A stretch of 42,744 nt of DNA, from positions 1 through 42,744 of IMG/VR virus record IMGVR_UViG_3300031746_000052; one strand, written 5' to 3'. The notes under the pieces are model-generated. The model did not search any database. It had not been told where the DNA came from and saw nothing but the letters and a program-made list of their open reading frames with translations. This DNA comes from a virus. Position numbers and translations under genes: made by a program. The number at the start of each line of letters is the position of its first letter. Within the stretch, counting starts at the first letter, position 1. Of the stretch, positions 394 to 42,077 are shown one piece after another.

Positions 394-664
394 GCGTCCC
401 ACCCGCCGAGCACGCCCTACAATGCCTGATCCTCCGCCCGTCCGACCCATAGTACCCAATTGCCCATAGTCCGCGCCCGTTATCGCAGCCCTCCGCAGGG
501 TCGATAGTGTGTGTGCCCTCCCATACCCTCCACAGGTAGATCGCCCATTGTAGCGTATTCCAGACGCCCTCTTTGCCCATGCCCTGGGACCAAGCACGCA
601 CCATTAGTAGGCGCCCTCCCCTATCCATGCCCATGTCTGCCTCTTCTCTGTGGAGGAAGCCCAC

Positions 665-706
665 GTCCGATAACACCCAGGTCCGATAACCACACCGTCC
701 GATAAC
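665..706. repeat. Three direct iterons GTCCGATAAC with exact 16-bp period
   Basis: GTCCGATAAC occurs at 665-674, 681-690 and 697-706, so the starts are exactly 16 bases apart. The six spacer bases differ (ACACCC+AG, CACACC, CCAGCC-like), so only the decamer is conserved. Regular spacing on one face of the helix is typical of initiator or repressor arrays. Confidence 0.85.
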
Positions 707-812
707 CCAGCCGGCCCCCCGGAGACGCGGGCGAACCCCGGCCAAAGACCTCCCCCACGCCGAAAAAATACAGAAAATACCAACCCCTACAATCGTTACA
801 GTCTATACCTAC

Positions 813-975
813 GGAAGGTCGCAAAGGAGGGGAAGGTCGCAAATACACGTCCTAAGACACCCCTTTATACAACCTTCCACGTTATTACTCTAATATCCTT
901 GAAGGGTGCAAGAAGGGGGGGGGTGAAAATGGGAAGGTCGCAAATATGGGGGTCTCTGGGGGAGTTTTTGCGACC
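813..975. repeat. GGAAGGTCGCAAA repeats, three direct and one inverted core
   Basis: The 13-mer GGAAGGTCGCAAA occurs at 813-825, 831-843 and 932-944. The core is found inverted as TTTGCGACC at 967-975, only 16 bases from the stop of the ATPase gene. These could be protein-binding sites of a replication origin or of a regulator. The family is distinct from the 16-bp iterons upstream. Confidence 0.8.
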
Positions 976-990
976 TAGCGTTTTTAGCGT

Positions 991-2055
991 CTAATCGAGG
1001 GTAGGCAGGGACCATTCCCAGTATCCCCCCCCTTCCGGTAGGGTATTCTTCACAGCCTGTATCTCATCTTTCTTCTTGACGTTTTGCAGGGTTCTCTCCG
1101 AATATCCCTCCGTTTTTCCATCCCTGTATACATCTGCTGCTGGCTTCGGCCCATCCGATAGGTACTTCCACAGCCAATCCCCTGCGCTTTCTTGCTTCCT
1201 CGGCCTCCCATTCTGACCCTGCGGAGGAGCCAACTCTTCCTTTGCAGTCTCCAACAGAATCCCTTTCTCGAACAGGCAATATCCAACCTGCCCAGTCTTC
1301 CCATCCTCCGTTACGATAGGAGCAGACGTAATCCTGTACGCCAGCCCCGTGGTCTTAGGGGACAGATTACCCTTGAAGAACAGCATTTTCCTGCGGTCTC
1401 TATCCTTCTGGTCCGTCTGTATCAACCACATAGCTCGCGCCGTAGCGGAAATCCCCGTGGACCCAATAACCCTGTGCTCTGCGGAGGCTGATTCATTTTT
1501 GTTCAGGTGGCTGATACCCACGATAGCGATATTCTTCTCCGCTGCCATCACCGACAGGGGCATAAGGTACTCTCTCACTTCCGAGTTCTTGTTCTCATCC
1601 TTCCCCTCCATGTACGCCGAAATGGGATCAATGATAATGAGTCTCAAGTCCGGTATCTGCTTGACCGCATCCCATAGTACGTCCAAATCTTTCGTAAGAT
1701 TGAACAGCCCTTTGGTCTTATCCCCAATGTTGAAACTGGGTATCACAGCGATCTTCCCCATGTCCGCCTGTGCAGCCTGCAACCGTGGTTTGATCGTCTT
1801 CGAGACCGAATCCTCCGTGGACAGTATGATGGTGGACCCAATAGTCTGCTTCTTTCCTTCCCCGTCCGCCCACGGTCTCCCCGTAGATATCTGCGCCGCC
1901 ATATACAGCGACAAGAAGGATTTCGTCCCTCCCTGTACGCCCACCAGCATGGAGTACATCCCCAGGGGTATCTTATCGGGCCACAACCACTCAGTTGTTT
2001 CCGACTTAACATCCTTTAGGAACACTACGTTGGCAGACTTTTGTATCTCAGCCAA
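991..2055 (-). CDS. RepA-like RecA-fold replication ATPase (AAA_25 type)
   Basis: A 354-residue protein of the RepA/DnaB-like hexameric ATPase group, probably a replicative helicase or helicase-like initiator. Seen: an N-terminal EWLWPDKIPLG strand; a P-loop at residues 39-46 reading GVQGGTKS, where the usual Gly before Lys is Thr; TEDS at 80-83; a Walker B strand ending IIIDP with D143; HLNK in the sensor region; and a C-terminal winged-helix-like segment (WLWKYLSDGP...SERTLQNVKKK), usual for this family. The TTG start at 2055 is supported by its 8-bp overlap TTGGCTGA with the upstream gene, the same geometry as the other two junctions in the operon, and by an AAAGG site. Last gene of the minus-strand operon. 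Confidence 0.85.
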   Translation of the reverse strand: MAEIQKSANVVFLKDVKSETTEWLWPDKIPLGMYSMLVGVQGGTKSFLSLYMAAQISTGRPWADGEGKKQTIGSTIILSTEDSVSKTIKPRLQAAQADMGKIAVIPSFNIGDKTKGLFNLTKDLDVLWDAVKQIPDLRLIIIDPISAYMEGKDENKNSEVREYLMPLSVMAAEKNIAIVGISHLNKNESASAEHRVIGSTGISATARAMWLIQTDQKDRDRRKMLFFKGNLSPKTTGLAYRITSAPIVTEDGKTGQVGYCLFEKGILLETAKEELAPPQGQNGRPRKQESAGDWLWKYLSDGPKPAADVYRDGKTEGYSERTLQNVKKKDEIQAVKNTLPEGGGYWEWSLPTLD

Positions 2056-2287
2056 GTTGGCCTTCTTTCTTCCTCCATATTACATCCTTCTCGTATCTAT
2101 AGCACGGAAACCCCCTTCTCAATTCTATTGGTTTCGGATTTCCTGGATAGTACCCACAAAGGTTAACCCCCACCGTAGAGTAACAGCATGTCGAACATTC
2201 TGCCGGTATCTCCCTCTGGCGTTGTATCTCTTTGGACATCTCTTCTTGATGCTCTCTAAGACCCTTCTCAAATTGGAAATCACTCAT
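2048..2287 (-). CDS. Small Cys-rich protein, possible zinc ribbon
   Basis: This encodes 79 residues: an N-terminal charged helix (EHQEEMSKEIQRQRE) and then a cysteine module, C31-x2-C34-(C35)-x8-C44-x17-C62, followed by basic residues. The pattern suits one structural zinc ion. I chose the ATG at 2287 because it overlaps the preceding stop as ATGAGTGA, matching the other operon junctions; a further in-frame ATG lies upstream at 2320. The first cysteine spacings match those of the small plus-strand protein at 3656-3853. Function unknown; position just before the ATPase suggests a replication accessory. Confidence 0.65.
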   Translation of the reverse strand: MSDFQFEKGLREHQEEMSKEIQRQREIPAECSTCCYSTVGVNLCGYYPGNPKPIELRRGFPCYRYEKDVIWRKKEGQLG

Positions 2288-2453
2288 GGTAGGTTCCCCC
2301 CCATTGTCCCTCCCCCCCATCCCTGCACCACCTTCTACCGTCCCAGGCCAGCCACTTACCGCTCGTGTGGTCGTACCTCACCTTGTTCCCGTAATCCGTG
2401 GCGAACCGCAGAGCGTTTCCCATGTCCGTTTGTGGATAATTCAAATCAGTCAC
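2280..2453 (-). CDS. Stand-alone fragment resembling the N-terminus of phage D5-type primase-helicases
   Basis: A 57-residue protein beginning at GTG 2453, which overlaps the previous stop as GTGACTGA. Its sequence carries the signature T-D-M-G-N-A...RY...GKWLAWDGRRW, which resembles the segment that opens many phage and plasmid primase-helicases ahead of the D5_N/helicase region. Here that segment ends by itself, and the ATPase is a different family encoded two genes later. It may be a domain that works in trans with the RepA-like ATPase, or a relic left after replacement of a longer primase. The family resemblance is from memory. Confidence 0.55.
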   Translation of the reverse strand: MTDLNYPQTDMGNALRFATDYGNKVRYDHTSGKWLAWDGRRWCRDGGEGQWGGTYHE

Positions 2454-3853: not shown

Positions 3854-4581
3854 GTAAACACGCCATTCTCTGTGGGGATTTCCTGAAAATACTCCCCACT
3901 CTACCTCCAGCCACGATGATCTTCGCTGATCCCCCCGACAACTTGGGTGTAGTCTATGATGGCGGTGTGTCGGATCAGCGTAACGACTATCTGCACTGGC
4001 TTCTCGAAGGGATAGCCACAGCAGCTTTGTTACATGATCCAAAGGTATTCTGGCTAAGCATAAACCATATTTACCTCTCGGATGTACTAAGGTGGTTCGG
4101 ATGCTGGAGATCGGATTCCCCCTCAGAGTGGCAGGTCCGTTTATTTCTGTGGCGGTTCACCTTCGGACAGCACCGGAACAGCGACTTCGGCAACGGCTAC
4201 CGTCCCATCCTACGCTTCTCTCGGCCTGGAACCGAGTGGTACACAGACAGTGTACGAGTGCCCTCCGCCCGGCAGACCAAGTACCACGACAAGCGGGCCT
4301 CTGCGGAGGGACGTGTTCCCGATGACGTGTGGGACTTCCCCCGCGTGTGCGGGACCTTCCACGAACGCCGTCCTTGGCACCCCAACCAACATCCGGAGGC
4401 CCTAATGGAGCGCATCATAAAGGTATCGTGCCGAGAGGGTGACGACTGCATCGACCTCTTTGGGGGAACCTTCACGACGGATCGCGTATGCCGTAGGCTC
4501 GGCGTATCCTGCACGAGCATCGAGATTTCCCCCGTGTACTGCCAGAAATACCAGGAAGAACTATCACATGCGACGACCTGA
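3850..4581 (+). CDS. DNA methyltransferase, beta class (N6-adenine or N4-cytosine), DPPD variant
   Basis: A 243-residue SAM-dependent DNA amino-methyltransferase. The catalytic motif comes first (ADPPDNLG, residues 26-33, where DPPY is usual) and the SAM-binding motif lies near the C-terminus (IDLFGGTFTT, 201-210), the beta-class order. Before it is HPNQHPEALMERII, matching the HPxQKPExLxxRII signature of this class. The Tyr-to-Asp change at the last position of the catalytic motif and FGGTF instead of FxGSG are notable; activity may be altered. I chose ATG 3850, with GGAGG at 3840-3844 and ATGA coupling to the previous gene, over a GTG at 3838. It could protect the phage from host restriction or tag DNA for packaging. 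No cognate nuclease is seen. Confidence 0.8.
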   Translation: MSKHAILCGDFLKILPTLPPATMIFADPPDNLGVVYDGGVSDQRNDYLHWLLEGIATAALLHDPKVFWLSINHIYLSDVLRWFGCWRSDSPSEWQVRLFLWRFTFGQHRNSDFGNGYRPILRFSRPGTEWYTDSVRVPSARQTKYHDKRASAEGRVPDDVWDFPRVCGTFHERRPWHPNQHPEALMERIIKVSCREGDDCIDLFGGTFTTDRVCRRLGVSCTSIEISPVYCQKYQEELSHATT

Positions 4582-4666: not shown

Positions 4667-5097
4667 GTCATGCACTCAAGACCTTTGATTTCGGATCGGG
4701 GGAGATAACGGAAGTCTCATATCTGGAAAAGGTGTTCGGGATCAAACGTCGGACGGCAATGGCCTATCTCAAAGCCCTCCATATCCAGCCCATCTTCATC
4801 GGAGCGGACGCATACTTCAGCCTCCCCACCCTCCGCAGAATCCTGTTCGTCCTGAGCCGTCCGGGGTCACCGGGATTTGTCATGCCCGGCTCCAAAAAGA
4901 AGAACGATCCCCGACTCAACAAGGGGGGCTACCTGACCGAAGTGACCGATGGGATTCTGGCGCAGGCGGCTGCCCCGGTCATCCTCGCGGAGATGGCTGG
5001 GGCGACGGGGCGGGACGTAGACCTCTTGAAGAAATTTATCGTCCCCTCCGCAGAGAAGAAATCCAAGAAACCAAAAGAGGAACCCGATGGAAAATGA
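4663..5097 (+). CDS. Helix-turn-helix DNA-binding protein, possible small terminase or regulator
   Basis: A 144-residue protein. Residues about 15-55 (VSYLEKVFGIKRRTAMAYLK...ADAYFSLPTLRRIL) look like an excisionase/MerR-style winged helix. The C-terminal part is helical with a Lys-rich tail. The GTG at 4663 is chosen because GGAGG (4650-4654) lies eight bases upstream and GTGA overlaps the previous stop. Lying two genes upstream of the terminase cluster, it could recognise packaging DNA, but an early regulator is as likely. A homing endonuclease gene now separates it from the rest of the cluster. Confidence 0.55.
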   Translation: MSHALKTFDFGSGEITEVSYLEKVFGIKRRTAMAYLKALHIQPIFIGADAYFSLPTLRRILFVLSRPGSPGFVMPGSKKKNDPRLNKGGYLTEVTDGILAQAAAPVILAEMAGATGRDVDLLKKFIVPSAEKKSKKPKEEPDGK

Positions 5098-5620: not shown

Positions 5621-6336
5621 ATGAAATCCAACGGGTAGCTCCGGACGATCTGACAGGTCTGATTCTATCCTATAATGACCCGAACCTGGTGGCCGGTCTA
5701 TTCGATTCGATGGGGTGGAATCTTACCGAAGAGATCAAGGAGACCTTATATGTGGCTCGTCAGTCCAAGAATCTTGCTGCGAAGATGACTGCCTTGAAAT
5801 ATCTCCGAACACTCGTAAATGAAACGGCAGAATCGGCCGGTTATTTGGCCAAGGTATCTCAGACAGTATCAACAGACGACGGAAGCCAAACAACGTTCTC
5901 GGCCCGGCGCATCGCTGGTGCCTTGAATCCAACCAACAACAAACTTCATAAGGAGATCGTGAATGTCCAAGACCAACGAGAATCAACCGCTGTCGTTCGA
6001 GGAAGCCTTACAGGGGAGACCGGGGGGATTGGAGATCGAGGAGTCGTTGCCCCCGGACGCGATGGACGATCCGGGTCCTATGACGGAGGACGAAGTGCTG
6101 GAGCAAGCCTTGGGGGAGGAGAAGGCGGAGATGATGCTGGGGACGAACTTCCAGGAGATACCGGAGACCCCGATGAACATACCGGACGTGGTGGAGATGG
6201 CTTCGATGATACTCCCCCATACTCCACCGGAGGCCCCTGCATCGACCATCGCCCTCCCACTTGTAGACATGCCCTCTACCCAGGTGTATCCTCCGCAGGG
6301 CCAGACGGAAGAGAACAGTCCGAAGAAAAGGTTTGA
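5617..6336 (+). CDS. Putative terminase small subunit with out-of-frame overlapping tail
   Basis: A 239-residue open frame. Residues 1 to about 120 form a normal helical protein (NLAAKMTALKYLRTLVNETAESAGYLAKV), similar in style and position to small terminase subunits that lie just before the large one. From about residue 118 the frame overlaps the next gene (start 5963) for 374 bases, and the protein becomes Gly/Asp/Arg-rich low complexity, the look of a frame shadowing another gene. Either the tail is genuinely translated, or a +1 shift or sequence error joins this gene to the 5963 frame. The start ATG overlaps the endonuclease stop. Confidence 0.55.
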   Translation: MNEIQRVAPDDLTGLILSYNDPNLVAGLFDSMGWNLTEEIKETLYVARQSKNLAAKMTALKYLRTLVNETAESAGYLAKVSQTVSTDDGSQTTFSARRIAGALNPTNNKLHKEIVNVQDQRESTAVVRGSLTGETGGIGDRGVVAPGRDGRSGSYDGGRSAGASLGGGEGGDDAGDELPGDTGDPDEHTGRGGDGFDDTPPYSTGGPCIDHRPPTCRHALYPGVSSAGPDGREQSEEKV

Positions 6337-6622
6337 GGAGTTCGTTCGGGGACCTGAGTTCACGGTCAGTTGGGTGGAACAACACCTCCAACAGTTCTCG
6401 GATGTACCTTTCATTCTCCCCAGCCCCTCGACATGGGCCGGACTTGGAGGGATGGACGTGGCAAAAGCTGTTCACGACTTCATGCGTTCGCCATCATTCC
6501 TAAACAGGATTTGGAGGCAGTTAGAGATGGTCATGGGGCTTTCCGTGGACAATACGCCGTGGTGCGTAGAGGTCGCTTGCTCAATGATGCTATTCCATTT
6601 CTTGTGGTATCTGTCTGAATGA
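5963..6622 (+). CDS. Acidic protein of unknown function upstream of the terminase
   Basis: A 219-residue protein. The first half is acidic and Pro-rich (EEALQGRPGGLEIEESLPPDAMDDPGP is typical of its composition), likely flexible; the C-terminal 90 residues look folded, with Trp-rich helices. AAGGAG seven bases before the ATG is an excellent ribosome-binding site. It overlaps the candidate small terminase by 374 bases in another frame and the large terminase by ATGA. A packaging or scaffold accessory role is suggested by position only. It carries one copy of the iterated motif (6291), encoding PPQG. Confidence 0.6.
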   Translation: MSKTNENQPLSFEEALQGRPGGLEIEESLPPDAMDDPGPMTEDEVLEQALGEEKAEMMLGTNFQEIPETPMNIPDVVEMASMILPHTPPEAPASTIALPLVDMPSTQVYPPQGQTEENSPKKRFEEFVRGPEFTVSWVEQHLQQFSDVPFILPSPSTWAGLGGMDVAKAVHDFMRSPSFLNRIWRQLEMVMGLSVDNTPWCVEVACSMMLFHFLWYLSE

Positions 6623-8472
6623 TAATCAACCGCCCATACCCACTGTTCCCCCTCCCTTCCGACTACGGAGACCTCTCTGCGGAGGGTCAGAAGTTGGCCC
6701 GGCTGTCGGTACTGTCGGACCACTCGACGCCCTATCGTCTCACATGTGCTTGGGACTTCTTCCGCCGCACGTACCTGGCGGGGACGGAACAGGCGGTGTT
6801 CTACAAAAAGGGCTTCTCGGAATCACCGGAGTTCCACTATGACATGATTTTTGATATGGGGATGCACGGCCGGAACGTGACGGCGGCTCCCCGTGGGTCG
6901 GCCAAGAGCACGGTGCTGACGGAGATTGCCATGCTCCTGGCGTTGACCAAGCCCCCCTACGAGACGATGTTTGGTCTGGCAACGGACAAGCTGGTGGAGG
7001 AGCGGTTCGACCAGATCATGTTTCAGTTCCAGGATAACGAGTTGATCCTGCAAGACTTCGGGGATATGCGTCCCAAGCGGGGCAGCGCGTTGTGGAACCA
7101 CCATTATCTCCACCTGTCCAACGGATCGGTCATCAAGGGCCTGTCGGTCATGGGTAAGAAGCGCGGCGGGCGTCCCCATCTGTTCATCCTGGACGACCCG
7201 GAGAACGACCCGGACAGCGACTCGGAATCGTCCCGCGCCATCCTCATCGAGAAGTTCGAGATGATCCTGTTCAAGCAAATCCTCCCCATGCTTGAGAGCG
7301 GATCGTGCGTTTCATGGGTTGGGACCCTGATCGACCGGAAGGCGTTCCTCTACAAGGCGGTGAAAGGGGACGATCCCAGGTTCGACTTCTGGAATCGCAA
7401 GACTCTCCGGGCCATATCCTACGACAAGGATGACCCGAAGAAATGCCACGTTCTGTGGCCCGCGAAGTGGCCCCAGGATGTACTCGAAGCCCGTAAAGAA
7501 GAGATTGGCCTGAGTGCGTTTCATAGCGAATACCTGAACGAGCCGGTCAGTGCCCAGGACAGGATTTTGATTGTTGATCCTCGGCGTAATGAATACACCG
7601 TGGATGGATCGTTCAACTGGAGTAACCCCCTATCCAACGAGAACCTGGTACACTGGAACGACCGGGTGTTTGGGGAAGACTCTACGGGCCGAATCTATCT
7701 GGAGAGGACAGCCCCCTATCACGAATTGGTACGTCCCATGTTCCGGTTCCTCCTCTTCGACTATGCGGAGGGATTGACTTCGTACAACGACTACTCCTGT
7801 ATCGCCATCTGTGGAATGGATACCCAGGCCACCTTGTGGGTGCTGCAAATGCTGCTTATGAGGGCCAAAGAAGACACTCTCATGCGTCTGATCTATGAGA
7901 CCGGGTTGGCGTGGCAGGTGCGGGTCATCGGGATCGAGGCCGTGAGTCTCCAAAAAGCCTTTGTGGAGGCAACACGGGAGTACACACTGGAGCAGGGAAA
8001 CATGCGGGGGGATCAGTGGCGGGCACGAGTGTTTCCGATCACCTACCCTTCGAGAGAGTCCAAGGCCCAAAAGATCGCCTCCCTGGAGTGGCGGTTCAAT
8101 TCCGGCCGCATCAAGTATCCCGCGCACATGCGGAACGAGTGGCCCTACAACCAACTGTACGACCAAACGCAGGACTTCACGATGGATCTTGCGCTCCTGC
8201 CACATGATGATGCGATTGACACCCTTTCCATGTCTAAGTACGTCATCAAGACGACCGGGCACCAGTTCAAGCGGGAGGCGGGACAGTCGGGTCTACTGGA
8301 GCGAATCATCAAGAACCAACCGGCTATCCCAGGGCAACCCCTATTGTCGGGGGTCTCCTCCAGCCAGATCAGCGACGAGATGATGGGAATTTTGTCCCGT
8401 CGTGCAAGGGATAAGGCTATCGAACCACGACGTAGGCGAATCGAGCGTAGGAATCCGAGAAATATACGGTAG
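6619..8472 (+). CDS. terL: Terminase large subunit
   Basis: The DNA-packaging motor, 617 residues. The ATPase domain shows an adenine-side motif and Walker A at residues 90-98 (APRGSAKST), then Walker B LFILDDPE at about 188-195 with the catalytic acid following. The nuclease half has FDYAEGLTSYNDYS, with the first catalytic Asp of the RNase H fold, and HDDAIDTLSMS near the C-terminus with later acidic ligands. The basic tail (RRRRIERRNPRNIR) may contact the portal or DNA. ATGA overlap with the preceding gene. Size and order before the portal are typical of podoviruses. Confidence 0.95.
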   Translation: MIINRPYPLFPLPSDYGDLSAEGQKLARLSVLSDHSTPYRLTCAWDFFRRTYLAGTEQAVFYKKGFSESPEFHYDMIFDMGMHGRNVTAAPRGSAKSTVLTEIAMLLALTKPPYETMFGLATDKLVEERFDQIMFQFQDNELILQDFGDMRPKRGSALWNHHYLHLSNGSVIKGLSVMGKKRGGRPHLFILDDPENDPDSDSESSRAILIEKFEMILFKQILPMLESGSCVSWVGTLIDRKAFLYKAVKGDDPRFDFWNRKTLRAISYDKDDPKKCHVLWPAKWPQDVLEARKEEIGLSAFHSEYLNEPVSAQDRILIVDPRRNEYTVDGSFNWSNPLSNENLVHWNDRVFGEDSTGRIYLERTAPYHELVRPMFRFLLFDYAEGLTSYNDYSCIAICGMDTQATLWVLQMLLMRAKEDTLMRLIYETGLAWQVRVIGIEAVSLQKAFVEATREYTLEQGNMRGDQWRARVFPITYPSRESKAQKIASLEWRFNSGRIKYPAHMRNEWPYNQLYDQTQDFTMDLALLPHDDAIDTLSMSKYVIKTTGHQFKREAGQSGLLERIIKNQPAIPGQPLLSGVSSSQISDEMMGILSRRARDKAIEPRRRRIERRNPRNIR

Positions 8473-8534: not shown

Positions 8535-8786
8535 ATGGATATCGTGGGCGTGGCAATTCTCGTCGTGGTGACGGGTGTTCTGGCAATAGCGGTGGATAAG
8601 CTGGTCCATCGTGTACTCAGCATGAACGAAAAGTTAATGGTGATGCTCGCATCCCGTGATGGAGACGCAGCGGGGGCCAGACTCCTATCCATGAACAAAC
8701 CTCCGCAGGGCCACCTTCCGGGGGTTGCTAAACCTGCGGAGGAGAAACCCAAAACAGGAACCGTAGTTACTTACGGGGGGATGTAA
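8535..8786 (+). CDS. Small membrane-anchored protein
   Basis: An 83-residue protein. The N-terminal helix (IVGVAILVVVTGVLAIAV) is a membrane anchor; the rest is hydrophilic and ends in a Pro/Lys-rich tail. AAAGGAG precedes the ATG. The tail-coding DNA holds an inverted pair of the iterated motif (8700-8709 and 8733-8742, loop 23), which can form a 10-bp hairpin; the two halves encode PPQG and PAEE. It sits between terminase and portal. Function unknown. Confidence 0.65.
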   Translation: MDIVGVAILVVVTGVLAIAVDKLVHRVLSMNEKLMVMLASRDGDAAGARLLSMNKPPQGHLPGVAKPAEEKPKTGTVVTYGGM

Positions 8787-8787
8787 A

Positions 8788-10860: not shown

Positions 10861-11712
10861 ATGCCAGACCCAGTTGTAGACCCGAACCTGAAACCTGAAC
10901 CGACAAAGCCCGACACGTATGACTTGACGGTGGATGGGGCTAAGCGTACTGTTACCCTGTCGGAAATGCAGGAGTTGGCACAAAAGAGTGCGGGGGCGGA
11001 TGCGAAGTTCCGGGAGGCAAGCGACCTTCGGAAGGAAGCTGAAGACGGGATGAGACTCAAGGGTCTCGTGGCCCGGATGTCGGATGGGAGCTACACACCC
11101 ACCTCCGCAGAGACCTCCGAGTTGGCGAGCCTGATTGGGGTCGATCCCAAGGAGTTCGCCGAGTACCTGAAATCCGACGAGAAGGTTCCGGCCAAGGGCG
11201 CCGCCAAATCTGCGGAGGGAATCACCAAGGAGGACCTCGTGAAAGCGTTGGGGTTCGACCCTGCGGAGGCCAAGGCTATTCTGGACTACTCTCACCAGCG
11301 TCATATTGACGATGCACGCAGACAAATCCGAGAATTATCGGACAATGCGGTTGACAAAGATGACGTTTTTGGTAAAATGGTAGTAGGTGAGAACGGAAAG
11401 GATCGTTCCGCCGCGATTAAGGATATGGTAGCAGAGGACGTACTCAGAGCAGTTCAGGATGGACGCCCGTTTGGGGCCGAGCTTGTGGCGGCAAGTGTTC
11501 AAAAGACACGCGCCCACCTTACCAAGTTTGGAATCCAAGGGAATCCGAGCCAACACCCCTTGACGTTGGGACTTGGCCCAGGAGGAGGGTTGCCCGCCGA
11601 AGTGCAATCTGAGACCCCCATCAAGCGAATCAGTTCCGCCGACGACACGGATGAATCGAACTTCGTGGCTCGGACCATGCAAAAGGTCTTGAAATCCATG
11701 CGGGGCGGCTGA
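10861..11712 (+). CDS. Capsid scaffolding protein
   Basis: A 283-residue, highly charged helical protein between portal and coat, where phage scaffolds sit. It begins with a Pro-rich segment, continues with a helical central part (ADAKFREASDLRKEAEDGM) and ends with a short basic helix (MQKVLKSMRGG) suited to binding the inner face of the coat. GAAAGGAA precedes the ATG. Three copies of the iterated motif fall within it (11103, 11210, 11261), in different frames. A sigma-70-like promoter lies inside the coding sequence at 11351. Confidence 0.75.
   Translation: MPDPVVDPNLKPEPTKPDTYDLTVDGAKRTVTLSEMQELAQKSAGADAKFREASDLRKEAEDGMRLKGLVARMSDGSYTPTSAETSELASLIGVDPKEFAEYLKSDEKVPAKGAAKSAEGITKEDLVKALGFDPAEAKAILDYSHQRHIDDARRQIRELSDNAVDKDDVFGKMVVGENGKDRSAAIKDMVAEDVLRAVQDGRPFGAELVAASVQKTRAHLTKFGIQGNPSQHPLTLGLGPGGGLPAEVQSETPIKRISSADDTDESNFVARTMQKVLKSMRGG
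11351..11378 (+). promoter_or_regulatory. Internal promoter inside the scaffold gene
   Basis: A consensus TTGACA (11351-11356), a 16-base spacer and TAAAAT (11373-11378). It would give an extra transcript for the zinc-finger gene and the major capsid protein, which phages need in large amounts. Its location in coding sequence makes it less certain. Confidence 0.45.
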
Positions 11713-32424: not shown

Positions 32425-32964
32425 ATGCCTGCTGCATTGCTCAAGCTGTTGTCTCTTCTTGCGATGGTCCCCGGTGGATTAAAGATGTTGGGTAGAGGGG
32501 CTAAGGCCGCGGGTAAGGCCACGCCCGGACTGGCCAAGGCAGGATGGGGGAAGGCGGAAGAAGCTGCATCGACTCCTGGTGGTCTTGCTGCTTTGGCCGG
32601 TGGGGCCTACTTTGGGAATGAGATTCTTGGGCAGTTCGGAGCAGCAGGACAACGGAATATCTCCCGCGCGGAACTTGCATTGCAGGAGAAACTCGCCGGG
32701 ATGTCTGCGGAGGCTACCAAGTTGCTGGTGCAAGAATCCAGAGCGGGCACGGAGAAGTCCTTAAAGGAGACGAGAGAGATACGGAAAGAGGATCTCCGTC
32801 GAGCACAGGAGGATAGGATGATGGAGATGTTCCTATCTGGACAGCAGAATCAAGTGGCCATGCTACTCCAGGCCGCGCAGGGGAGGGCGGGAACACCTGG
32901 GATGGCGGGGAGCCAACCGGCTGCTGGCGGGGGGATCACGGGAATCTTGAGGAGTAATCTGTAA
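32425..32964 (+). CDS. Small internal virion protein candidate, membrane-active look
   Basis: A 179-residue protein. The N-terminal 70 residues are Ala/Gly/Leu-rich with two hydrophobic helices (LLKLLSLLAMVPGGLKML, GLAALAGGAYFGNEILG), followed by a long charged helix (TKLLVQESRAGTEKSLKETREI) and a Gly/Pro tail. Membrane-active helices suit proteins inserted into the host envelope during DNA ejection. It starts two bases after the previous stop and overlaps the next gene by one base. Confidence 0.55.
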   Translation: MPAALLKLLSLLAMVPGGLKMLGRGAKAAGKATPGLAKAGWGKAEEAASTPGGLAALAGGAYFGNEILGQFGAAGQRNISRAELALQEKLAGMSAEATKLLVQESRAGTEKSLKETREIRKEDLRRAQEDRMMEMFLSGQQNQVAMLLQAAQGRAGTPGMAGSQPAAGGGITGILRSNL

Positions 32965-33398: not shown

Positions 33399-36300
33399 AT
33401 GGGCAAAAAATATGAACTCGATGACGACGCTCCCTATGGGGTAGCCTCCGCAGACTTCCCAATCACCGGGTATGACAGGCCCCAACTCGCATTTGCCAAC
33501 CTCCTCCGTGGCGACGTTGATGGTATTACCAGAGCGATGCTGTCCCCCTCTACACTCACCCCCACCCAGATCAAGACGGTGCGGGATACGCTCCTGCCCG
33601 GCAAGCACCCAAACCCAATCCTCAAGACCATCACCGACATAGCCACCAACCCCCTCGTGATCGCCGGGCTGGTCGTGGGCCTTTGGAAATTTCCCCTGGG
33701 CACGACCGAACCTCTTCTCGCCCTGCGGAGGGGTTTATTGCCCAAGGCCGCTGCGATGGACTCGTTGTTCGCCGGGATGCACGGGGCGATGATGAACCTG
33801 CGCACACACCCCGGACTGTTCGAGAAGTTGAACTCTGTGTATGAGGCCACGGCTGCGTTCAAACTGAAGTATTGGGAGAGGGCCAACAAGATATTCCTCG
33901 ATGCCGGACCCATGAGCAAGGTCGAGCGTCTTGCGGTGGCGGCACGGATGGATGGGTTACAAAACGCAGACCACAGTATGGTGAAGCTGCTTGGGAATGA
34001 GCCGGAAATCATAGCACTTATGGGGGGAAAGAATGTTCCCGTTGCAGCGGGACTTCAAGGCAAGATGCGGAAAGAGGTTGTAGGAGCAGCCGATAAGATG
34101 CGGGACTTGCAAGATGACGTATGGAAGTGGGCCACCAGCAATCCAGAGGCGGAGAAGCGTATCCACGATGCGGTTGAGAAGAAGGGGTTGGTTTCTGGGG
34201 GGAGGATAGATAGCCATTTCCCCCGTTCGGTAAAATTCAACAGGTACGAGAATGACTACCACCGAGGAGTGAGCGGTGTACAGAGTCGTAACTACGTGCA
34301 TGATGAGGATTATACAAAGGTGAGTGGGGCCTATGTGGAACGTCCTGATTACTCAATGGGCAACTTGGATAACCTGTTGGAGATGGAAAAGGCCGGGATG
34401 ATTCCGCTCGGATACAATAAGGCGGCTCGTGCGGTCTTGAATAGGTGGTCGGGAGAAGCGGCGAGTACAGTGGAGAGGGTGTGGAACGAGGTCAAGGTGA
34501 TCGGGACGGACGAGGGGGCACACCGGGCCATGTTCGCCCAGAGGATGACCGAGTATTCCGAGAAGAGTAATATGAATTTTGTGGCTCGGTTGGGTAAACC
34601 AGAAAAGGCTAGGTCTACCTTGGACGCAATGGCCCTATCTCTCCAACAGGCACGGTTCGGGGGGCAGGAGGCAATCAAGAAGGAGTTCCAAAGCATCGGT
34701 AGGGTGCTGGCAGAGCCGGGACAGTATTCCCTCGATCCCCATGAGGCACTGGGCCGGTACGTAAGCACCGTGGCAGATACCCATGCGTGGCATGGGACCG
34801 GGTATGGTAAAGAGATTGAGGCTATTGTCAAGCGTAAAGGGGAGTTCGATAAGGACCCGTGGGCCAAATCCTATGTGGAAGACGGGCTTATTCCTCACGT
34901 CCGGGGAGTGATGACTGACAAGCAACTGGCACGATCCTTAAATGCCACTATACACAAGGAGAAGATATACAACTGGCTGGGAAGCCACCCCATGATCGAC
35001 TCGGTGATTGGGCCGGAGAACAAGAAATGGTTGATGAACTACTACAAGGACTCCAAATTCTTCTCTTCCCTCGATTCCATGAGTAGTGCCGCAGCGAGTA
35101 ACTTCTACCTATCCACTTTGGGGGGTAACGTATCGTCGGCCGCAGCTAATTCACTACAACCCCTCCTCACAACCGTCAACTCTGTGGGCGTGCGTGGTAT
35201 ATGGTATGGCCTCAAGGGATTCGCCGGTCAAGAGGGGATGCTATCTCGAATGAGCCGATATGTTGGAGACTTGTCTAAGGGGGTGGGGCGAGACGAGGCG
35301 TTCAAGGCGGCGTTCCCCGACTTCGTAGAAGACCTTGGGACAGCATCTAAGGCGATCAGCACCCAATTGGCTATAGAGACGGAGCAATCGGGCGCGTTGA
35401 GTGTGGGGGCAAAGACCGTGTGGGGGAAGGTCAAGGATGCGATGATGCTCCCCTTCTCCACTTCCGAGACTCACAATAAACTGCTGGCCTACTACTCCGG
35501 GAAGAATACCCACCTATTCCATAACGCTACCAAGCTGGCCGAAGCCTCCGCAGAGGGCCGGGCAGCTATCCTCAAGGAAGCGGGTGAGGTGGGGCAGACC
35601 CTCAACATGGTATCCAATTTTACGGGGGGACCACTGGGGGTACCCAAGGCCATTATGAATTGGTCCCCAGCGGCGAGGCAGTTCATGCACTTCCCCCTTC
35701 GCATGATGGGGGCGTTGCATGGCTCGCTACGTATGGGGATGGACCCCAGCAAGCTCGATTTTGGATTCATCGGACGGGCTACGGCTGGATCAGCGGCGGC
35801 ATACCTGACGGCGCGGGACCTTCTGGGGGTCGACATATCCAAGGGGTTGATGACGGGGGCATTGCCTATCCCGGAGTATGAGAAGTCCCCGTTCTACCCG
35901 TTCCCATTTGTACCTCCGATTGCACAGGTGGCGGGAACGACAGCGATGGGACTGTTGAAGGGGGATACGTCCCAACTGGCGGGGGCTGCGGCTATGGCGG
36001 TTCCGGGTGGGATCGCACTGAGCCGGGCCTACCGGACGCTCTCCCCCCGGTACGCGGACTACACGAACCCGACTCCGGAGGGCCGGGTGCCCCTATATGA
36101 CCATAACAAGTCATTGATCGGGACACTCTCCCCGATGGAGCTTACCCTACGGTCTATGGGTCTGCGCCCCACCTCCGTCTCTGCGGAGGCTGGCGCGGCT
36201 AAGTGGCTGGTGTCCCAGAGAGATCGTATTCGGGGATACCGACGGGATTTCACCCAAGCGATCACGGACAACGAGACCCAGAAGGCCGACAAGATCAAGG

Positions 36301-36993: not shown

Positions 36994-37022
36994 TTGCATC
37001 CAACCTCCGCAGAGGGTACAAT
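36994..37022 (+). promoter_or_regulatory. Sigma-70 promoter, second copy; spacer carries the iterated motif
   Basis: TTGCAT (36994-36999), 17 bases, TACAAT (37017-37022). The exact octamer CTCCGCAG fills the spacer (37005-37012). The -10 ends seven bases before ATG 37029, so the message should be leaderless. It starts the DNA-metabolism operon. Confidence 0.75.
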
Positions 37023-37562: not shown

Positions 37563-40135
37563 CGTTTGAATCACATTCAGATTGTAAACTATGCCCATTG
37601 TACCAATCGGCAAGGAATCCCGGACTACCCACAAGAAGTCTCTATGATGGACAACCACTACAAAAAAACGTAGCAATCTTATTTACCGGCCAAAGTCCGG
37701 GGCACCAAGAGGATATGAAAGGGAAGTCGTTCGTTGGATTCACCGGCCAGTTGTTGGAGAAGATGGTCCGGGCGTCGCGACTGACGGACTACGCTGACGT
37801 GTACTTGGTCAATTCCTGCCGGTGCAAACCCCCGCAGGGGGCGGACGAGTCACAGTCCAATATCCGGGCGTGCCTCCCGTACTTGCAAGAGGACGTAGCT
37901 ATACTTGGAGGAATGTATGAAGAGGTCGTTATCGTGGCGTTGGGAGCTAAGGCAGCCTATTCCGCCCTTCACCTGTCCTCATTGGGTGCGGCCCTCAAGA
38001 AGCAGGGTCAGAAGAGTGCTGTATTTGGTGGTAAGGTTCGTGTGTTTTGCACGTTCCATCCTGCTATGCTTCACCCATTGCGGGAGCCGGGGAAAATATT
38101 CGCCGTCGAAACCCATTTCTCGTTGATCCTTCGCTACCTCCGGGGGGAGTTAATCCCCAATGCGTTGCAGATTGATCCGGAGGTGGGGATTGATCCTCCG
38201 CAGGTTCTACCCCCGTTCGTCACAATGGACATCGAGACCTATGGAATCTTGGAGGGTAAGGAACAGACGGTGTTCCACCCGATCAAGTCGAAGGAGATCG
38301 ACGGGGTTCCGTTCGAGGACCAGATCGTCTCCGTAGCGTTTGGATGGAGGGATGGGGACAGACTGAGGACGGCGCAGTATGTGTGGTCTGAACCCCATCA
38401 CAAAGAGCAGATACGGGAATGGTTTTACCGGATTAACGAACAAAAGGTTGTGGTGGTTGGACAGAATATCAAGTTCGATCTCTTGTATTTGTACTTGTCA
38501 AAAGACCCAATACTTCCATTCCTGATTAACCAAAGACGAATAACTCTGGACGACACGTTGTTGTTGAGTTTCCTCCTCTATGAGCAGCAGCCGGAGAAGG
38601 GCCTCAAGGAATTGGCTACGCTATTCGGGATCGCGGACTATTCCGAAGTTAACGTAACCGGAAAGTCTGGTAATGCTAAGTCCTCGTGGGATAAGGACTT
38701 ACACTACTACAACTGCCTTGACGCGGCGGCTACCCTCGTCCTGTACGAGGAACTCCTGCGGAGGATCAAGGAACGATACGGCCCCGACTCTCCCAAGTTG
38801 AGCAAGACCTGCGCTTGGACTCGGAACATGATCCTGTGGGATACGTTCTACCTGGAAGAGACGGGTAGCTCATTTGACGTCGCCAAGCTACAGGCTTTCC
38901 ATGAGGAAGAGACCATCCGATGCCAAAATCTCTTGACCTCCGCAGAGACGGACCACGAGATCAAACTTTGCGGGACCGGATCAGATGCTCCCCTGAGACA
39001 ACTCCTACTCGACTGCCTGCGAGAAGCAGGGTTGTTGGAAGACAGCCGAGTGGAGTGGACGGGGAAGACAAAGAAGATTTCGATAGGGGTCGAGAACGTC
39101 AATCTCATCTTGGAACATATTCCGGAGGGAAAGAACAAGCAACTTATTGCGATGTTCCAGGACTACAAGGAACGATCCAAACTCGTTTCTACTTACACGG
39201 GTCCGCTCCTGATCGATCCTCGGAAGGGGATTATGCCACACACCGGGGACGTGGGGATGGTCTATCCGACGTGGTACGCAATTCCTATGTACTCGGAGCG
39301 GGGGGGAAGTTCGGATGTCAAGAGCGGGGGTCAGATTCAGGGACGGTTCTCGTGCAAGAAACCCGCCCGGCAGACGGAGCCACACAGCATACGTGATTGC
39401 TCGTGCTCCCGATGGCCGGGGGGGAAGATCGTTGAGTACGACGTGAACCAAGATCATCTACGGATGGCAGCGTTGCTGTCTGGCGACCCCCTGCTCATGG
39501 AAGCCTATACGAAAGAAGGGGAGAGCATCCATACTCGAACCGCCTTGACGCTGTTCCCCAACGAGAACCCGGTGGGGTTCAAGAAGCGGGAGCCGGTGAA
39601 GTACGCACTGGGGAAGACGCTCAATTTCCTCGTCCTGTTCCGTGGGGGGGCCGACGCCTTTCAGAGCACGGCCCGGAGAGACGCGGGAATCGAGGTCGAT
39701 ATTGAGTTCTGTGATCGGGCGATCAAGACGTGGTATGCCAAACACCACGTATACAAGGCGTGGCAAGATGAGATGATAGCCTTGGCCGGTAGACAGGGGT
39801 ATCTTGTTCTGCCCACCGGATGGTCCAGGACGTTCGGGGTCGGGTGTACGGCTGGAAAGGGGGGGGAAATATGCAACTTCCTCCACCAGACCCCCTGCGC
39901 CCAACTGCTGCACTCAGTCCAGTACCGGGCCCAAGCACGTTTCATGGAAGCAAACCTCCGCAGTGTGATATGCCTGCAAATCTACGACGCTCTGTTTGTG
40001 GACACTTACCCTGCGGAGGGAGAACGAGTGGACGCGATCATGGGCGACTGTATGAAACATCCCCCCCTGCTCGAAGTGTTTTCGAGGTGGGTGGGAAGAA
40101 CAGTGCCGTGGGATTATGAAAGGAAAGAGACATGA
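37538..40135 (+). CDS. Uracil-DNA glycosylase / family A DNA polymerase fusion
   Basis: An 865-residue replicative polymerase. Residues 1-205 are a family 4/5-type uracil-DNA glycosylase domain: Cys at 16, 19, 94/96 and 112 placed to hold a 4Fe-4S cluster, GQSPGHQED at 51-59, FVGFTGQLLEKM, and the HPAMLHP loop at 174-180. Residues 228-405 are a 3'-5' exonuclease: DIE (231-233), GQNIKFD (308-314), YYNCLDAA (390-397). The rest is a PolA palm-fingers domain: motif A DVNQDHLR (635-642), where His640 replaces the usual steric-gate Glu; fingers KTLNF (693-697); motif C QIYDALF, YDA in place of HDE, with D817 kept. SPO1-like phages are known to carry similar fusions. Six iterated-motif copies or variants lie in the gene. 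Confidence 0.9.
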   Translation: MGLFVGSLTFESHSDCKLCPLYQSARNPGLPTRSLYDGQPLQKNVAILFTGQSPGHQEDMKGKSFVGFTGQLLEKMVRASRLTDYADVYLVNSCRCKPPQGADESQSNIRACLPYLQEDVAILGGMYEEVVIVALGAKAAYSALHLSSLGAALKKQGQKSAVFGGKVRVFCTFHPAMLHPLREPGKIFAVETHFSLILRYLRGELIPNALQIDPEVGIDPPQVLPPFVTMDIETYGILEGKEQTVFHPIKSKEIDGVPFEDQIVSVAFGWRDGDRLRTAQYVWSEPHHKEQIREWFYRINEQKVVVVGQNIKFDLLYLYLSKDPILPFLINQRRITLDDTLLLSFLLYEQQPEKGLKELATLFGIADYSEVNVTGKSGNAKSSWDKDLHYYNCLDAAATLVLYEELLRRIKERYGPDSPKLSKTCAWTRNMILWDTFYLEETGSSFDVAKLQAFHEEETIRCQNLLTSAETDHEIKLCGTGSDAPLRQLLLDCLREAGLLEDSRVEWTGKTKKISIGVENVNLILEHIPEGKNKQLIAMFQDYKERSKLVSTYTGPLLIDPRKGIMPHTGDVGMVYPTWYAIPMYSERGGSSDVKSGGQIQGRFSCKKPARQTEPHSIRDCSCSRWPGGKIVEYDVNQDHLRMAALLSGDPLLMEAYTKEGESIHTRTALTLFPNENPVGFKKREPVKYALGKTLNFLVLFRGGADAFQSTARRDAGIEVDIEFCDRAIKTWYAKHHVYKAWQDEMIALAGRQGYLVLPTGWSRTFGVGCTAGKGGEICNFLHQTPCAQLLHSVQYRAQARFMEANLRSVICLQIYDALFVDTYPAEGERVDAIMGDCMKHPPLLEVFSRWVGRTVPWDYERKET

Positions 40136-40677
40136 TTCCATTCCCGGACAGGAAATACACTGTGATCTATGCTGATCCCCCGTGGAACGGATTGGGGTGG
40201 AATAACGGTAGTGGGCTGAAATGCCCGGCGAATCACTACGAAGTACAGGATGAAGAATGGATACAGAAGCTACCAGTGCCTTCCTTGTCGGAAGAAACAT
40301 GTTTTCTGTTTTTATGGGTGACGTTTCCCAATCTTCCTTCTGGATTAAAGGTAATTGACGCTTGGGGATTCAAGTATGCTACTTGCGCCTTTACATGGAT
40401 CAAGAGGAATAGGGTATCGGACTCCTACTTCGTAGGGTGCGGGAACTACACAAGGGCCAACTCGGAGATTTGTCTGTTGGGGACGAAAGGACATTGCCAG
40501 ACGTTGAGAAAGAGTAGAAGTGTTCTACAAGTTTGTGACGCTCGAATTGGAAGACATTCGGAGAAGCCTTCGGAGATTCGAGATAGAATAGTTCAACTCT
40601 GCGGAGACGTTTCTCGAATAGAGTTGTTTGCACGAACGAAAACAGAAGGATGGGACGTATGGGGGAATGACGTATGA
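40132..40677 (+). CDS. MT-A70 family N6-adenine methyltransferase
   Basis: A 181-residue methyltransferase. ADPPWNG at 14-20 is the catalytic DPPW of the MT-A70 group; further on, GNYTRANSEICLLGTKG, RHSEKPSEIRDRI and ELFARTKTEGWDVWGNDV are the family signatures for SAM binding and the C-terminal strand. It should methylate adenine in DNA. The start overlaps the polymerase stop as ATGA, so it is made with the replication proteins and could mark nascent phage DNA. One iterated-motif copy at 40599. Confidence 0.9.
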   Translation: MIPFPDRKYTVIYADPPWNGLGWNNGSGLKCPANHYEVQDEEWIQKLPVPSLSEETCFLFLWVTFPNLPSGLKVIDAWGFKYATCAFTWIKRNRVSDSYFVGCGNYTRANSEICLLGTKGHCQTLRKSRSVLQVCDARIGRHSEKPSEIRDRIVQLCGDVSRIELFARTKTEGWDVWGNDV

Positions 40678-41255: not shown

Positions 41256-41416
41256 GACCAGAGAAGGAAATCATGGAAGAATTGGAAGCTACCCGTGCCG
41301 ATATGCCAAAGACGGATTCGACCAGTGATATCTATACGCGGATCAAGTTACGATGCTATGCGTTGGCACTTCAATGGGTCCTGGACGAGGACGAAAAAAA
41401 TGTTGAGAAATCGTGA
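41252..41416 (+). CDS. Small charged helical protein, 54 aa
   Basis: Begins MRPEKEIMEELEATRADMP and continues as a helix (IYTRIKLRCYALALQWVLDEDEKN). It overlaps the nuclease stop as ATGA, so it should be translated with it. It is the last gene before the candidate RNA. Function unknown; a small partner of the nuclease is possible. Confidence 0.5.
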   Translation: MRPEKEIMEELEATRADMPKTDSTSDIYTRIKLRCYALALQWVLDEDEKNVEKS

Positions 41417-41423
41417 TTTTCCC

Positions 41424-41452
41424 TTGACCTATGGTAGCAAATCGGATACAAT
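41424..41452 (+). promoter_or_regulatory. Sigma-70 promoter of the candidate small RNA
   Basis: TTGACC (41424-41429), 17 bases, TACAAT (41447-41452). The predicted start, seven bases downstream at 41459, is the first base of the RNA closing stem. Confidence 0.75.
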
Positions 41453-41458
41453 ACAGTT

Positions 41459-41589
41459 GTGGGTGTTGCACAACAAGTCCTGTTGGACCCACGGAAACGT
41501 AAAGAGTTGGCTCGCAACACCCACCAGATTTGACCTCCGCAGAGTCGGGCGGGTCGTTGGCAGTGTCTTCGATCCGCCCGCTCGTTTTT
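41459..41589 (+). ncRNA. Candidate structured small RNA with own promoter and terminator
   Basis: About 131 nt without a gene. The 5' end GTGGGTGTTGC (41459-41469) pairs perfectly with GCAACACCCAC (41514-41524), an 11-bp closing stem. Inside it are GTCC-TGTT-GGAC (alternatively CAACA/TGTTG) and an ACG-GAAA-CGT hairpin with a GNRA tetraloop. A linker (41525-41545) carries ACCTCCGCAGAG, an exact iterated-motif copy that should be single stranded. A terminator hairpin follows. It might be a trans-acting RNA, a ribosome-directed decoy (CCUCC matches the anti-Shine-Dalgarno core) or a leader for 41608. I do not recognise a known RNA class. Confidence 0.6.
41546..41589 (+). terminator. Intrinsic terminator of the candidate RNA
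   Basis: CGGGCGGGTCG (41546-41556) pairs with CGATCCGCCCG (41570-41580), 11 bp with one G-U pair, 13-base loop, followed by CTCG and five T. Confidence 0.8.
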
Positions 41590-41607
41590 CTTAACCAGAG
41601 AGAACCA

Positions 41608-41748
41608 ATGACTGACGATAGAACATGGCGAAGACTTATCGACCTAGAAGCCAAGGTTATAGTCCAACAAGAGACTATAGCGAAACTGGAGGAGCGGATA
41701 GAGGCCCTGGAAATTCAAACACAGAGTGGGAGATTTGAACCACAATGA
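41608..41748 (+). CDS. Short coiled-coil protein, 46 aa
   Basis: Heptad-like helix LIDLEAKVIVQQETIAKLEERIEALE fills most of the protein, so it probably forms a dimer or trimer. ATG 41608 follows AGAGAG. Its stop overlaps the next start by ATGA. Similar short coiled coils are frequent in phage accessory operons; function unknown. Confidence 0.55.
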   Translation: MTDDRTWRRLIDLEAKVIVQQETIAKLEERIEALEIQTQSGRFEPQ

Positions 41749-42077
41749 TTGATCCAAACAAGGGCGTGAGCACAGAGAAGTTGGAACTCCTGCGGCAAGA
41801 GTCGTATGAGAGAATGTGTACCCAACTCAAGACGGCCATTGAACAGAAGCTCACCGACTTTCAGATGACATGGGATGACCTTGCCAATTGTGTACATTGG
41901 GAGGATGTCTACTGTGCTCCTGGGGAAGACCATATTTCTGGACTTGAGGTTAAGGGATTGATCGGCGATTGTGGGGGGGGAAGAGTAACTCTGAGTGGGT
42001 TGAATGACATTGCCCATTCATTCTCTGCGGAGGTGTACGTTATCTTCCGTCCGAGATATCCGTGGATAGCTACGTAG
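41745..42077 (+). CDS. Hypothetical protein, 110 aa
   Basis: An N-terminal helix (ESYERMCTQLKTAIEQKLTDF) followed by a beta domain with NCVHWEDVYCAPGEDHISG and a Gly-rich turn (GDCGGGRV), ending VYVIFRPRYPW. The start is coupled to the previous stop. One iterated-motif copy at 42025 lies in the beta part. No family recognised. Confidence 0.6.
   Translation: MIDPNKGVSTEKLELLRQESYERMCTQLKTAIEQKLTDFQMTWDDLANCVHWEDVYCAPGEDHISGLEVKGLIGDCGGGRVTLSGLNDIAHSFSAEVYVIFRPRYPWIAT

What the first reader, a model, noticed from the sequence alone, without database searches (positions are those of the whole stretch)
491..42032. A genome-wide iterated motif, CCTCCGCAGRG, in a phage
Forty-six exact CTCCGCAG octamers (22 forward, 24 inverted) occur in 42.7 kb, roughly twenty times chance. 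The motif occurs in every reading frame and both orientations, so protein sequence does not explain it. It is about as dense as uptake sequences in naturally competent bacteria or HIP1 in cyanobacteria, but those belong to cellular genomes. Possible roles: mimicry of a host dispersed signal, recognition site for a recombinase, primase or methyltransferase, or a spreading hairpin unit. Counts are seen; roles are inference.
Basis: partly seen in the sequence, partly recalled or inferred. Interest (0 to 1): 0.92.

Follow-up and report, generated by a model that had tools for sequence, protein, structure and literature searches.

The report
Phage genome dotted with nine-letter signal
This bacterial virus and its relatives carry one exact nine-letter DNA word about once per thousand letters on both strands, probably a host-read recognition mark that protects or recruits the viral DNA, and near relatives without it or with a different word suggest that it follows the host rather than the virus.

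Summary
In detail: 46 CTCCGCAG octamers (22+/24-) against 2.6 expected (order-3) or 1.6-2.0 (orders 3-6 trained on the motif-masked window); CCTCCGCAG 43 against 0.8. The RG tail is not conserved. Synonymous-codon shuffles leave 1.0-2.8 copies where 19-47 lie in genes of seven phages. Of 79 kept loci with related terminases, all 41 at 53% identity or more carry the octamer; the 38 below have 0-3 copies, and two examined closely use other words (GCCCCGCAG; CCCCGACCC). An unrelated phage family (Wolbachia-WO-like capsid) carries the same word in six contigs; near relatives there have none or few. Sites arise by point mutation, not insertion. New: each orientation is spaced more evenly than chance (repulsion below about 1.2 kb), and opposite sites pair in one polarity within 600 bp. 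The same script ranks the known uptake signal first in Haemophilus phage HP1, which lacks this strand pattern. No dense cellular genome appeared among 1,336 sampled; the host is unknown. Best reading: a host-read, orientation-dependent self-signal, Chi-like (0.40) rather than uptake-like (0.28). A spreading hairpin is not supported.

The parts
491..498 (+). CTCCGCAG site
1219..1226 (-). CTCCGCAG site
1479..1486 (-). CTCCGCAG site
4301..4308 (-). CTCCGCAG site
4831..4838 (+). CTCCGCAG site
5046..5053 (+). CTCCGCAG site
6291..6298 (+). CTCCGCAG site
6677..6684 (-). CTCCGCAG site
8701..8708 (+). CTCCGCAG site; convergent pair with 8734
8734..8741 (-). CTCCGCAG site; convergent pair with 8701
10766..10773 (+). 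CTCCGCAG site
11103..11110 (+). CTCCGCAG site; convergent with 11210
11210..11217 (-). CTCCGCAG site; convergent with 11103
11261..11268 (-). CTCCGCAG site
13612..13619 (+). CTCCGCAG site; intergenic convergent pair with 13646
13646..13653 (-). CTCCGCAG site; intergenic convergent pair with 13612
14976..14983 (-). CTCCGCAG site
17810..17817 (-). CTCCGCAG site
18345..18352 (-). CTCCGCAG site (TCTCCGCAG)
21104..21111 (-). CTCCGCAG site
22558..22565 (+). CTCCGCAG site
22923..22930 (-). CTCCGCAG site
24254..24261 (+). CTCCGCAG site
27638..27645 (+). CTCCGCAG site
28447..28454 (+). CTCCGCAG site
28538..28545 (+). CTCCGCAG site; convergent pair with 28581
28581..28588 (-). CTCCGCAG site; convergent pair with 28538
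30944..30951 (-). CTCCGCAG site
31210..31217 (+). CTCCGCAG site; convergent with 31296
31296..31303 (-). CTCCGCAG site (TCTCCGCAG); convergent with 31210
32030..32037 (-). CTCCGCAG site
32338..32345 (+). CTCCGCAG site
32705..32712 (-). CTCCGCAG site
33446..33453 (+). CTCCGCAG site
33723..33730 (-). CTCCGCAG site
35546..35553 (+). CTCCGCAG site
36181..36188 (-). CTCCGCAG site
37005..37012 (+). CTCCGCAG site
38196..38203 (+). CTCCGCAG site
38756..38763 (-). CTCCGCAG site
38938..38945 (+). CTCCGCAG site
39956..39963 (+). CTCCGCAG site; convergent with 40011
40011..40018 (-). CTCCGCAG site; convergent with 39956
40599..40606 (-). CTCCGCAG site (TCTCCGCAG)
41535..41542 (+). CTCCGCAG site
42025..42032 (-). 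CTCCGCAG site
6619..8472 (+). terminase large subunit, used to define the phage family
   Evidence: PHROG phrog_38 E 1.9e-57; relatives

Best explanation
YCTCCGCAG is a genome-wide, orientation-dependent DNA signal that this phage carries because a machine of its host reads it. Shown: the word is far above chance, independent of coding, lost and gained by point mutation, shared by an unrelated phage family, absent or replaced by another word in near relatives, and placed separately on each strand at fairly even intervals of about 2 kb (over the family; in the window alone only the pairing is significant). Inferred: selection acts on every interval because an enzyme that travels along DNA from a broken or free end recognises the word from one side only and then stops degrading the DNA or hands it to recombination. 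That is how Chi works with RecBCD or AddAB (recalled; PMC3784561, passages). The G-rich strand, CTGCGGAGG, would be the active one (inference); its paired sites point outwards, so that enzymes arriving from either side meet a correctly oriented site first. Which enzyme, and which host, is not known.
For: Overrepresentation against composition, masked Markov models and codon shuffles. All 41 loci with terminase identity of at least 53%, among the 79 kept of 241 found, carry 1-24 octamers (some loci are copies of one phage). Unrelated family B: no ORF in common with family A for G017-G019 and none for L282, L299 and L100, yet 6, 7, 3, 6, 7 and 3 octamers against 0.16-0.44 expected. Relatives of B without it: L408, 82% identical to L282 in one protein, 0 copies in 12.6 kb; L103, 0 in 7.6 kb. 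Other words in relatives of A: GCCCCGCAG 29 in 52 kb against 0.7, with no CCTCCGCAG; CCCCGACCC 38 in 45 kb against 2.2. Orientation dependence in seven phages: per-orientation gap CV 0.70 against 0.88 +- 0.04 when orientations are shuffled (none of 2000 as low), same-orientation pairs under 1.2 kb 110 against 154 +- 9, convergent pairs under 600 bp 83 against 41.5 +- 5.7; the same direction in 15 further contigs (CV P 0.025; convergent 43 against 20.6 +- 3.9). Uptake signals, by contrast, are reported to act independently of orientation (PMC1939737, passages), and those of HP1 and Aaphi23 show no such pattern (42 sites).
Against: About 1 site per kb is five times the 0.2 per kb given for Chi in coliphages without recombinase (PMC3784561, passages). 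The relative G016 encodes a Sak4-like recombinase and a weakly matched exonuclease, which could make a host Chi unnecessary. The preference for one polarity of close pairs is not predicted by simple Chi logic. No cellular genome rich in the word was found (1,336 genomes; top about 44 per Mb by rounded genome size). The dialect phage G733 shows no even spacing, and in the window alone evenness is not significant (P 0.23); only the convergent excess is (16 against 7.1 +- 2.3).
Confidence: 0.4

Rival explanations
1. It is a DNA uptake signal of a naturally competent host: phage DNA from lysed cells is taken up preferentially if it bears the word and recombines into resident phage genomes, so that copies accumulate, as uptake signals do in Pasteurellaceae phages.
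For: Same k-mer signature as the known signal in HP1 (AAGTGCGGT 17 in 32 kb against 0.6) and Aaphi23 (17 in 43 kb) by the same script; density about 1,000 per Mb is closer to uptake signals (saturation near 750 per Mb, PMC6776037, passages) than to Chi; different words in relatives; preference for frames that write small or acidic residues; sharing by unrelated phages.
Against: Uptake signals act independently of orientation and position (PMC1939737, passages), whereas spacing here is orientation-specific. No flanking consensus beyond about two bases, unlike HP1. No integrase was recognised in the 19 window proteins and 20 of 44 G016 proteins scanned; in PMC6776037 the phages above 150 kb, all likely lytic, were signal-poor. 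No signal-dense host among 1,336 genomes.
Confidence: 0.28
2. The word is read by the phage's own replication or recombination machinery, for example a strand-specific priming or replisome-loading site used about every 2 kb on each strand, and differs between phage lineages because that protein differs.
For: Mean spacing per orientation of 1.3-3.3 kb (from the counts) resembles Okazaki-fragment length (inference); relatives of the same phage family carry different words; the window encodes a family A polymerase, the relative G016 a D5-like primase-helicase, SSB and Sak4-like protein.
Against: Family B shares no detected ORF with family A yet carries the same word, though only fragments of B are known; L408 and L282 of family B are close but differ in having it. 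A nine-base priming word would be unusually long (recalled).
Confidence: 0.14
3. The word is a restriction, methylation or anti-restriction site, with convergent pairs because a translocating enzyme needs two head-to-head sites.
For: Convergent pairs are enriched; methyltransferase genes are present in the window (3838-4581, 40132-40677) and others in G016.
Against: Phages normally lose such sites, not gain them (recalled); the two methyltransferases of the window have matches in only one other family A genome each, while the word is in all of them. The specificity of none is known.
Confidence: 0.06
4. The motif spreads as a short mobile or templated hairpin unit without any selected function.
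For: Some close convergent pairs lie between genes and could form hairpins.
Against: Alignment gaps are no commoner near sites than elsewhere (0.218 against 0.255), and sites missing in an orthologue differ by substitutions; there is a strong preference for one reading frame; divergent pairs, which could also form hairpins, are not enriched.
Confidence: 0.03

Closest known systems
Uptake signal sequences in Pasteurellaceae phages (HP1, Aaphi23, SuMu, PHL101; PMC6776037)
   Same: One exact 9-mer, both orientations, far above chance, dialects, found in unrelated phages of one host group; the same script ranks it first among 8-mers in HP1 and Aaphi23.
   Different: Different word; higher density; orientation-specific spacing and one-polarity pairing; no flank consensus like that of HP1; host and its competence unknown.
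Chi sites in coliphages (GCTGGTGG; PMC3784561)
   Same: Short exact word whose effect depends on orientation (recalled), overrepresented in host and in phages that do not block RecBCD (PMC3784561, passages). Chi words differ between bacterial species (recalled); the G-rich strand CTGCGGAGG contains GCGG, as the recalled words of Bacillus and Staphylococcus do.
   Different: About five times denser; one polarity of close pairs; reader enzyme and host not identified; a relative has its own Sak4-like recombinase.
HIP1 of cyanobacteria (recalled)
   Same: Dense genome-wide octamer.
   Different: HIP1 is a palindrome of cellular genomes; this word is asymmetric and was found dense here only in phages.
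Mycobacteriophage stoperators (recalled)
   Same: Dispersed asymmetric phage motif.
   Different: Stoperators lie between genes, in one orientation, and bind a phage repressor; here sites lie mostly inside genes and in both orientations.

Membership tests
DNA uptake signal (USS/DUS) | Exact short word greatly overrepresented, both orientations, coding and non-coding | tested here: met
DNA uptake signal (USS/DUS) | Hundreds of copies per Mb in the host chromosome | tested here: inconclusive
   1,336 distinct cellular genomes counted, top about 44 per Mb; host unknown, so its genome may not have been sampled
DNA uptake signal (USS/DUS) | No dependence on orientation | tested here: not met
   orientation-specific spacing and pairing in family A; orientation-free action of uptake signals from PMC1939737 (passages). 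Indirect: spacing, not action, was tested
DNA uptake signal (USS/DUS) | Preferential uptake of DNA that bears it | not testable with these tools
   needs the host in culture
Chi site | Short exact word with effect in one orientation | tested here: inconclusive
   strand-wise even spacing fits; the effect itself is not testable here
Chi site | Overrepresented in the host genome | tested here: inconclusive
   no strongly enriched genome found in 1,336; host unknown
Chi site | Read by RecBCD, AddAB or AdnAB | not testable with these tools
   biochemical assay needed
Chi site | Phage lacks RecBCD inhibitor or own recombinase (tendency, PMC3784561) | tested here: inconclusive
   Sak4-like recombinase and weak exonuclease match in the relative G016; inhibitors were not searched for
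Mobile or spreading hairpin unit | Copies inserted as units, so gaps in orthologues at the sites | tested here: not met
   gap frequency 0.218 near sites (875 comparisons) against 0.255 elsewhere

The most novel reading that the evidence does not exclude
Phages of some uncultured bacteria carry a third kind of dispersed DNA signal, neither uptake signal nor Chi: a host-specific nine-base word laid out as two strand-specific lattices of about 2 kb, locked together in outward-facing (G-rich strand) pairs, with dialects between hosts, read by a strand-specific DNA-processing machine not yet described.
Probability: 0.25. Interest if true: 0.9.

Novelty: new variant of a known kind. Interest (0 to 1): 0.7.

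Why it matters
If the signal is host-read, its dialects would let metagenomic phages be grouped by host without culture, and the word itself would predict a Chi or uptake specificity in bacteria where none is known. The strand-wise spacing gives a sequence-only test that can separate orientation-dependent signals (Chi-like, priming) from orientation-free ones (uptake), and can be applied to any genome with a dispersed word.

Tried and rejected
Host search. Counts in 23 assorted genomes, 297 Desulfobacterota, 369 Gammaproteobacteria, 213 Verrucomicrobiota, 192 Patescibacteria and 247 Spirochaetota found none dense (1,336 distinct, each centre counted once). One search was meant for another deltaproteobacterial phylum but drew 197 genomes already counted. 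Phyla without a centre (Campylobacterota, Myxococcota, archaea and others) were not reached. One genome search was left unused.

Other phage records with a chance close pair: of the 118 stretches most were judged by the fetched stretch alone; 29 were counted whole (G007, G010-G014, G020-G037, G725-G729) and hold 2-8 9-mers. They were dropped as chance; G020 with 8 in 29.7 kb was not looked at further.

Ribosome-binding role of CTGCGGAGG: not favoured, since sites are equally sense and antisense and a look at a few window gene starts showed no fit; not tested systematically. Helical phasing of pair distances: none. 5'/3' bias within genes as reported for Pasteurellaceae (PMC2346458, text part 1 of 3): none (P 0.22). 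tRNA genes as host clue: none in the window and six relatives. One-mismatch variants: 181 against 92.6 expected in seven phages, the commonest mostly transitions, read as decaying sites; this does not separate Chi from uptake.

Results against my reading: evenness per orientation is not significant in the window alone (P 0.23) nor in dialect phage G733 (P 0.80). Family B contigs G017-G019, L282 and L299 were found through a close pair and are biased for it; only L100 was found without the motif (3 copies against 0.19). G017 and G019 share near-identical stretches, and L282 is tied to family B only by weak similarity. Sites shared by descent are not removed, only. Gene sets for the frame, codon and orthologue tests were my own ORF choice, not curated annotation.

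In print: one search, 'CTCCGCAG' with 'overrepresented', gave 7 unrelated papers in the listing; two listings on uptake sequences and phages showed no such case in the part listed. Literature seen: PMC2346458 (part 1 of 3 of the text), PMC6776037, PMC3784561 and PMC1939737 (found passages only); all others as search listings.


Full report
Observation. The window is a 42,744-base virus record. CTCCGCAG occurs 46 times (22+, 24-), against 2.6 expected by an order-3 model; CCTCCGCAG 43 times against 0.8. Higher-order models seem to explain the count only because the motif feeds its own sub-words: trained on the motif-masked window, orders 4-6 expect 1.9-2.0. The conserved core is YCTCCGCAG; the RG tail is a local preference that relatives do not keep.

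Not a by-product of coding. In seven phages, 19-47 copies lie in predicted genes where synonymous-codon shuffles leave 1.0-2.8 on average. Sense and antisense are equal (101, 99) and all frames occur; the commonest frame in each sense writes Ser-Ala or Ala-Glu, the pattern of a DNA word placed where protein tolerates it (the residue reading is mine).

Relatives. A terminase search found six relatives at 62-63% identity (two are the same phage), and a profile search found 241, of which 79 loci were kept. All 41 loci with identity of at least 53% carry the octamer (1-24 copies in the stretch held; some loci are one phage twice), though their G+C runs from 39 to 52% against 55% in the window; the 38 loci at 52% or less have 0-3 copies. 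Eight long relatives carry 14-66 octamers against 1.0-2.7 expected. Members share gene order in part and 6-42 ORFs per pair, counting ORFs of at least 80 aa in all frames.

Dialects. G732 (terminase 52%) has no CCTCCGCAG but GCCCCGCAG 29 times in 52 kb against 0.7; G733 (31%) has one CCTCCGCAG and CCCCGACCC 38 times in 45 kb against 2.2. Other distant loci show weaker candidates, not followed.

A second phage family. Three close-pair scans of viral contigs returned 118 stretches; those I judged dense fall into family A and a second family B with a major capsid protein 45% identical to that of Wolbachia phage WO. G017-G019 share no ORF with family A, nor do L282, L299 and L100. They hold 6, 7, 3, 6, 7 and 3 octamers against 0.16-0.44. 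All but L100 were found through a close pair, so they are biased for at least two copies; L100 was found by its capsid protein alone. Near relatives have none or few: L103 0 in 7.6 kb, L408 (82% identical to L282 in one protein) 0 in 12.6 kb, L409 0 in 6.6 kb, L102 3 in 20 kb. In four pairwise comparisons 9 of 26 sites could be aligned; there the relative differs at 2-6 of 10 positions, once by a gap. So the word changes faster than the phage genes, which points to the host.

Turnover. Over 423 orthologue pairs in family A, 200 of 875 site comparisons are conserved, 611 lost and 64 fall in gaps; gaps near sites are no commoner than elsewhere (0.218 against 0.255). Sites come and go by point mutation.

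Strand pattern. Sites alternate in orientation (216 of 331 neighbours in nine genomes, against 167 +- 9). Within each orientation they are more even than chance in seven phages (mean CV 0.72 and 0.68 against 0.93-0.94, none of 1,000 simulations as low), while all sites together are nearly random (0.90 against 0.97). In ten phages, same-orientation pairs are depleted up to about 1.2 kb and slightly enriched at 2-3 kb, and convergent pairs are enriched below 600 bp. With orientation shuffled on fixed positions, convergent pairs under 600 bp are 83 against 41.5 +- 5.7 in seven phages and 43 against 20.6 +- 3.9 in 15 further contigs. All of these except the window were also returned by the terminase search, so the close-pair scan does not create the effect. 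After removal of homologous duplicates (families A and B together), convergent pairs under 200 bp number 50, divergent 15, same orientation 25. Read on the G-rich strand, the paired sites point outwards. In the window alone the convergent excess is clear (16 against 7.1 +- 2.3) but the evenness is not (P 0.23).

Controls. The same script puts AAGTGCGG first among 8-mers in HP1 and Aaphi23 and the Apl-type AAGCGGTC first in SuMu and PHL101, so it detects known uptake signals. HP1 and Aaphi23 together (42 sites) show no alternation or convergent excess; HP1 alone is somewhat even over all sites (P 0.016). G732 shows the per-orientation evenness (P 0.006); G733 does not, but has a convergent excess (10 against 5.5, P 0.03).

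Host. 1,336 distinct cellular genomes from six samples hold at most about 44 copies per Mb by rounded genome size against 1,006 per Mb in the window. The host is either outside these samples or not itself dense in the word. The latter suits Chi better than uptake.

Mechanism. An uptake signal explains density, dialects and sharing, but uptake signals act regardless of orientation (PMC1939737, passages). Strand-wise even spacing is what one expects if an enzyme moving along DNA reads the word from one side and every long gap is costly, as with Chi. Chi is also exact and differs between hosts (recalled), and it is kept in phages that do not block RecBCD (PMC3784561, passages). Against Chi stand the fivefold higher density, the Sak4-like recombinase of G016 and the pair polarity, which I cannot fully explain. 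I therefore give 0.40 to a Chi-like host signal, 0.28 to an uptake signal and 0.14 to a phage-encoded reader. That the word is host-linked in some way I hold at about 0.75.

Novelty. Host signals in phage genomes are known; a new word with dialects, in uncultured phages, with this strand pattern, did not appear in the listings of the searches made. I call it a new variant of a known kind.

Noticed in passing
window 37538-40135 +: One ORF joins a uracil-DNA-glycosylase domain (PF03167, residues 43-179) to a family A DNA polymerase (PF00476); orthologues align over nearly the full length in five relatives.
   Followed up: no
window 5087-5620 + and 37029-37562 +: Two HNH endonuclease genes of the same PHROG families at distant places; both match one gene of G004 (40% and 45%) at 39453-40001, as expected of homing endonucleases.
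   Followed up: no
window 16908-17735 +: Trypsin-like serine protease with an N-terminal hydrophobic stretch; matches of 26-34% in three relatives.
   Followed up: no
window 11844-13610 -: A 588-codon open frame runs antisense to the conserved 528-aa gene 12015-13601 (perhaps the capsid gene, by position only); likely a composition effect.
   Followed up: no
L373, L374, L380, L383, L384, L385: Distant terminase relatives share a weaker recurrent word around AGTGGGGGGA, 6-10 copies per locus of its commoner octamer; L365 has one around TCTGCCGCCCGAAG.
   Followed up: partly
L265, L291: Two IMG/VR contigs of metagenome 3300031952 encode proteins 99.8-100% identical to the window's in the best matches shown, probably the same phage assembled in pieces.
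   Followed up: no
L392 11666-11744: Dialect phage G733 carries a tRNA-Arg (CCT) gene; none in the window or the seven other phages scanned.
   Followed up: no
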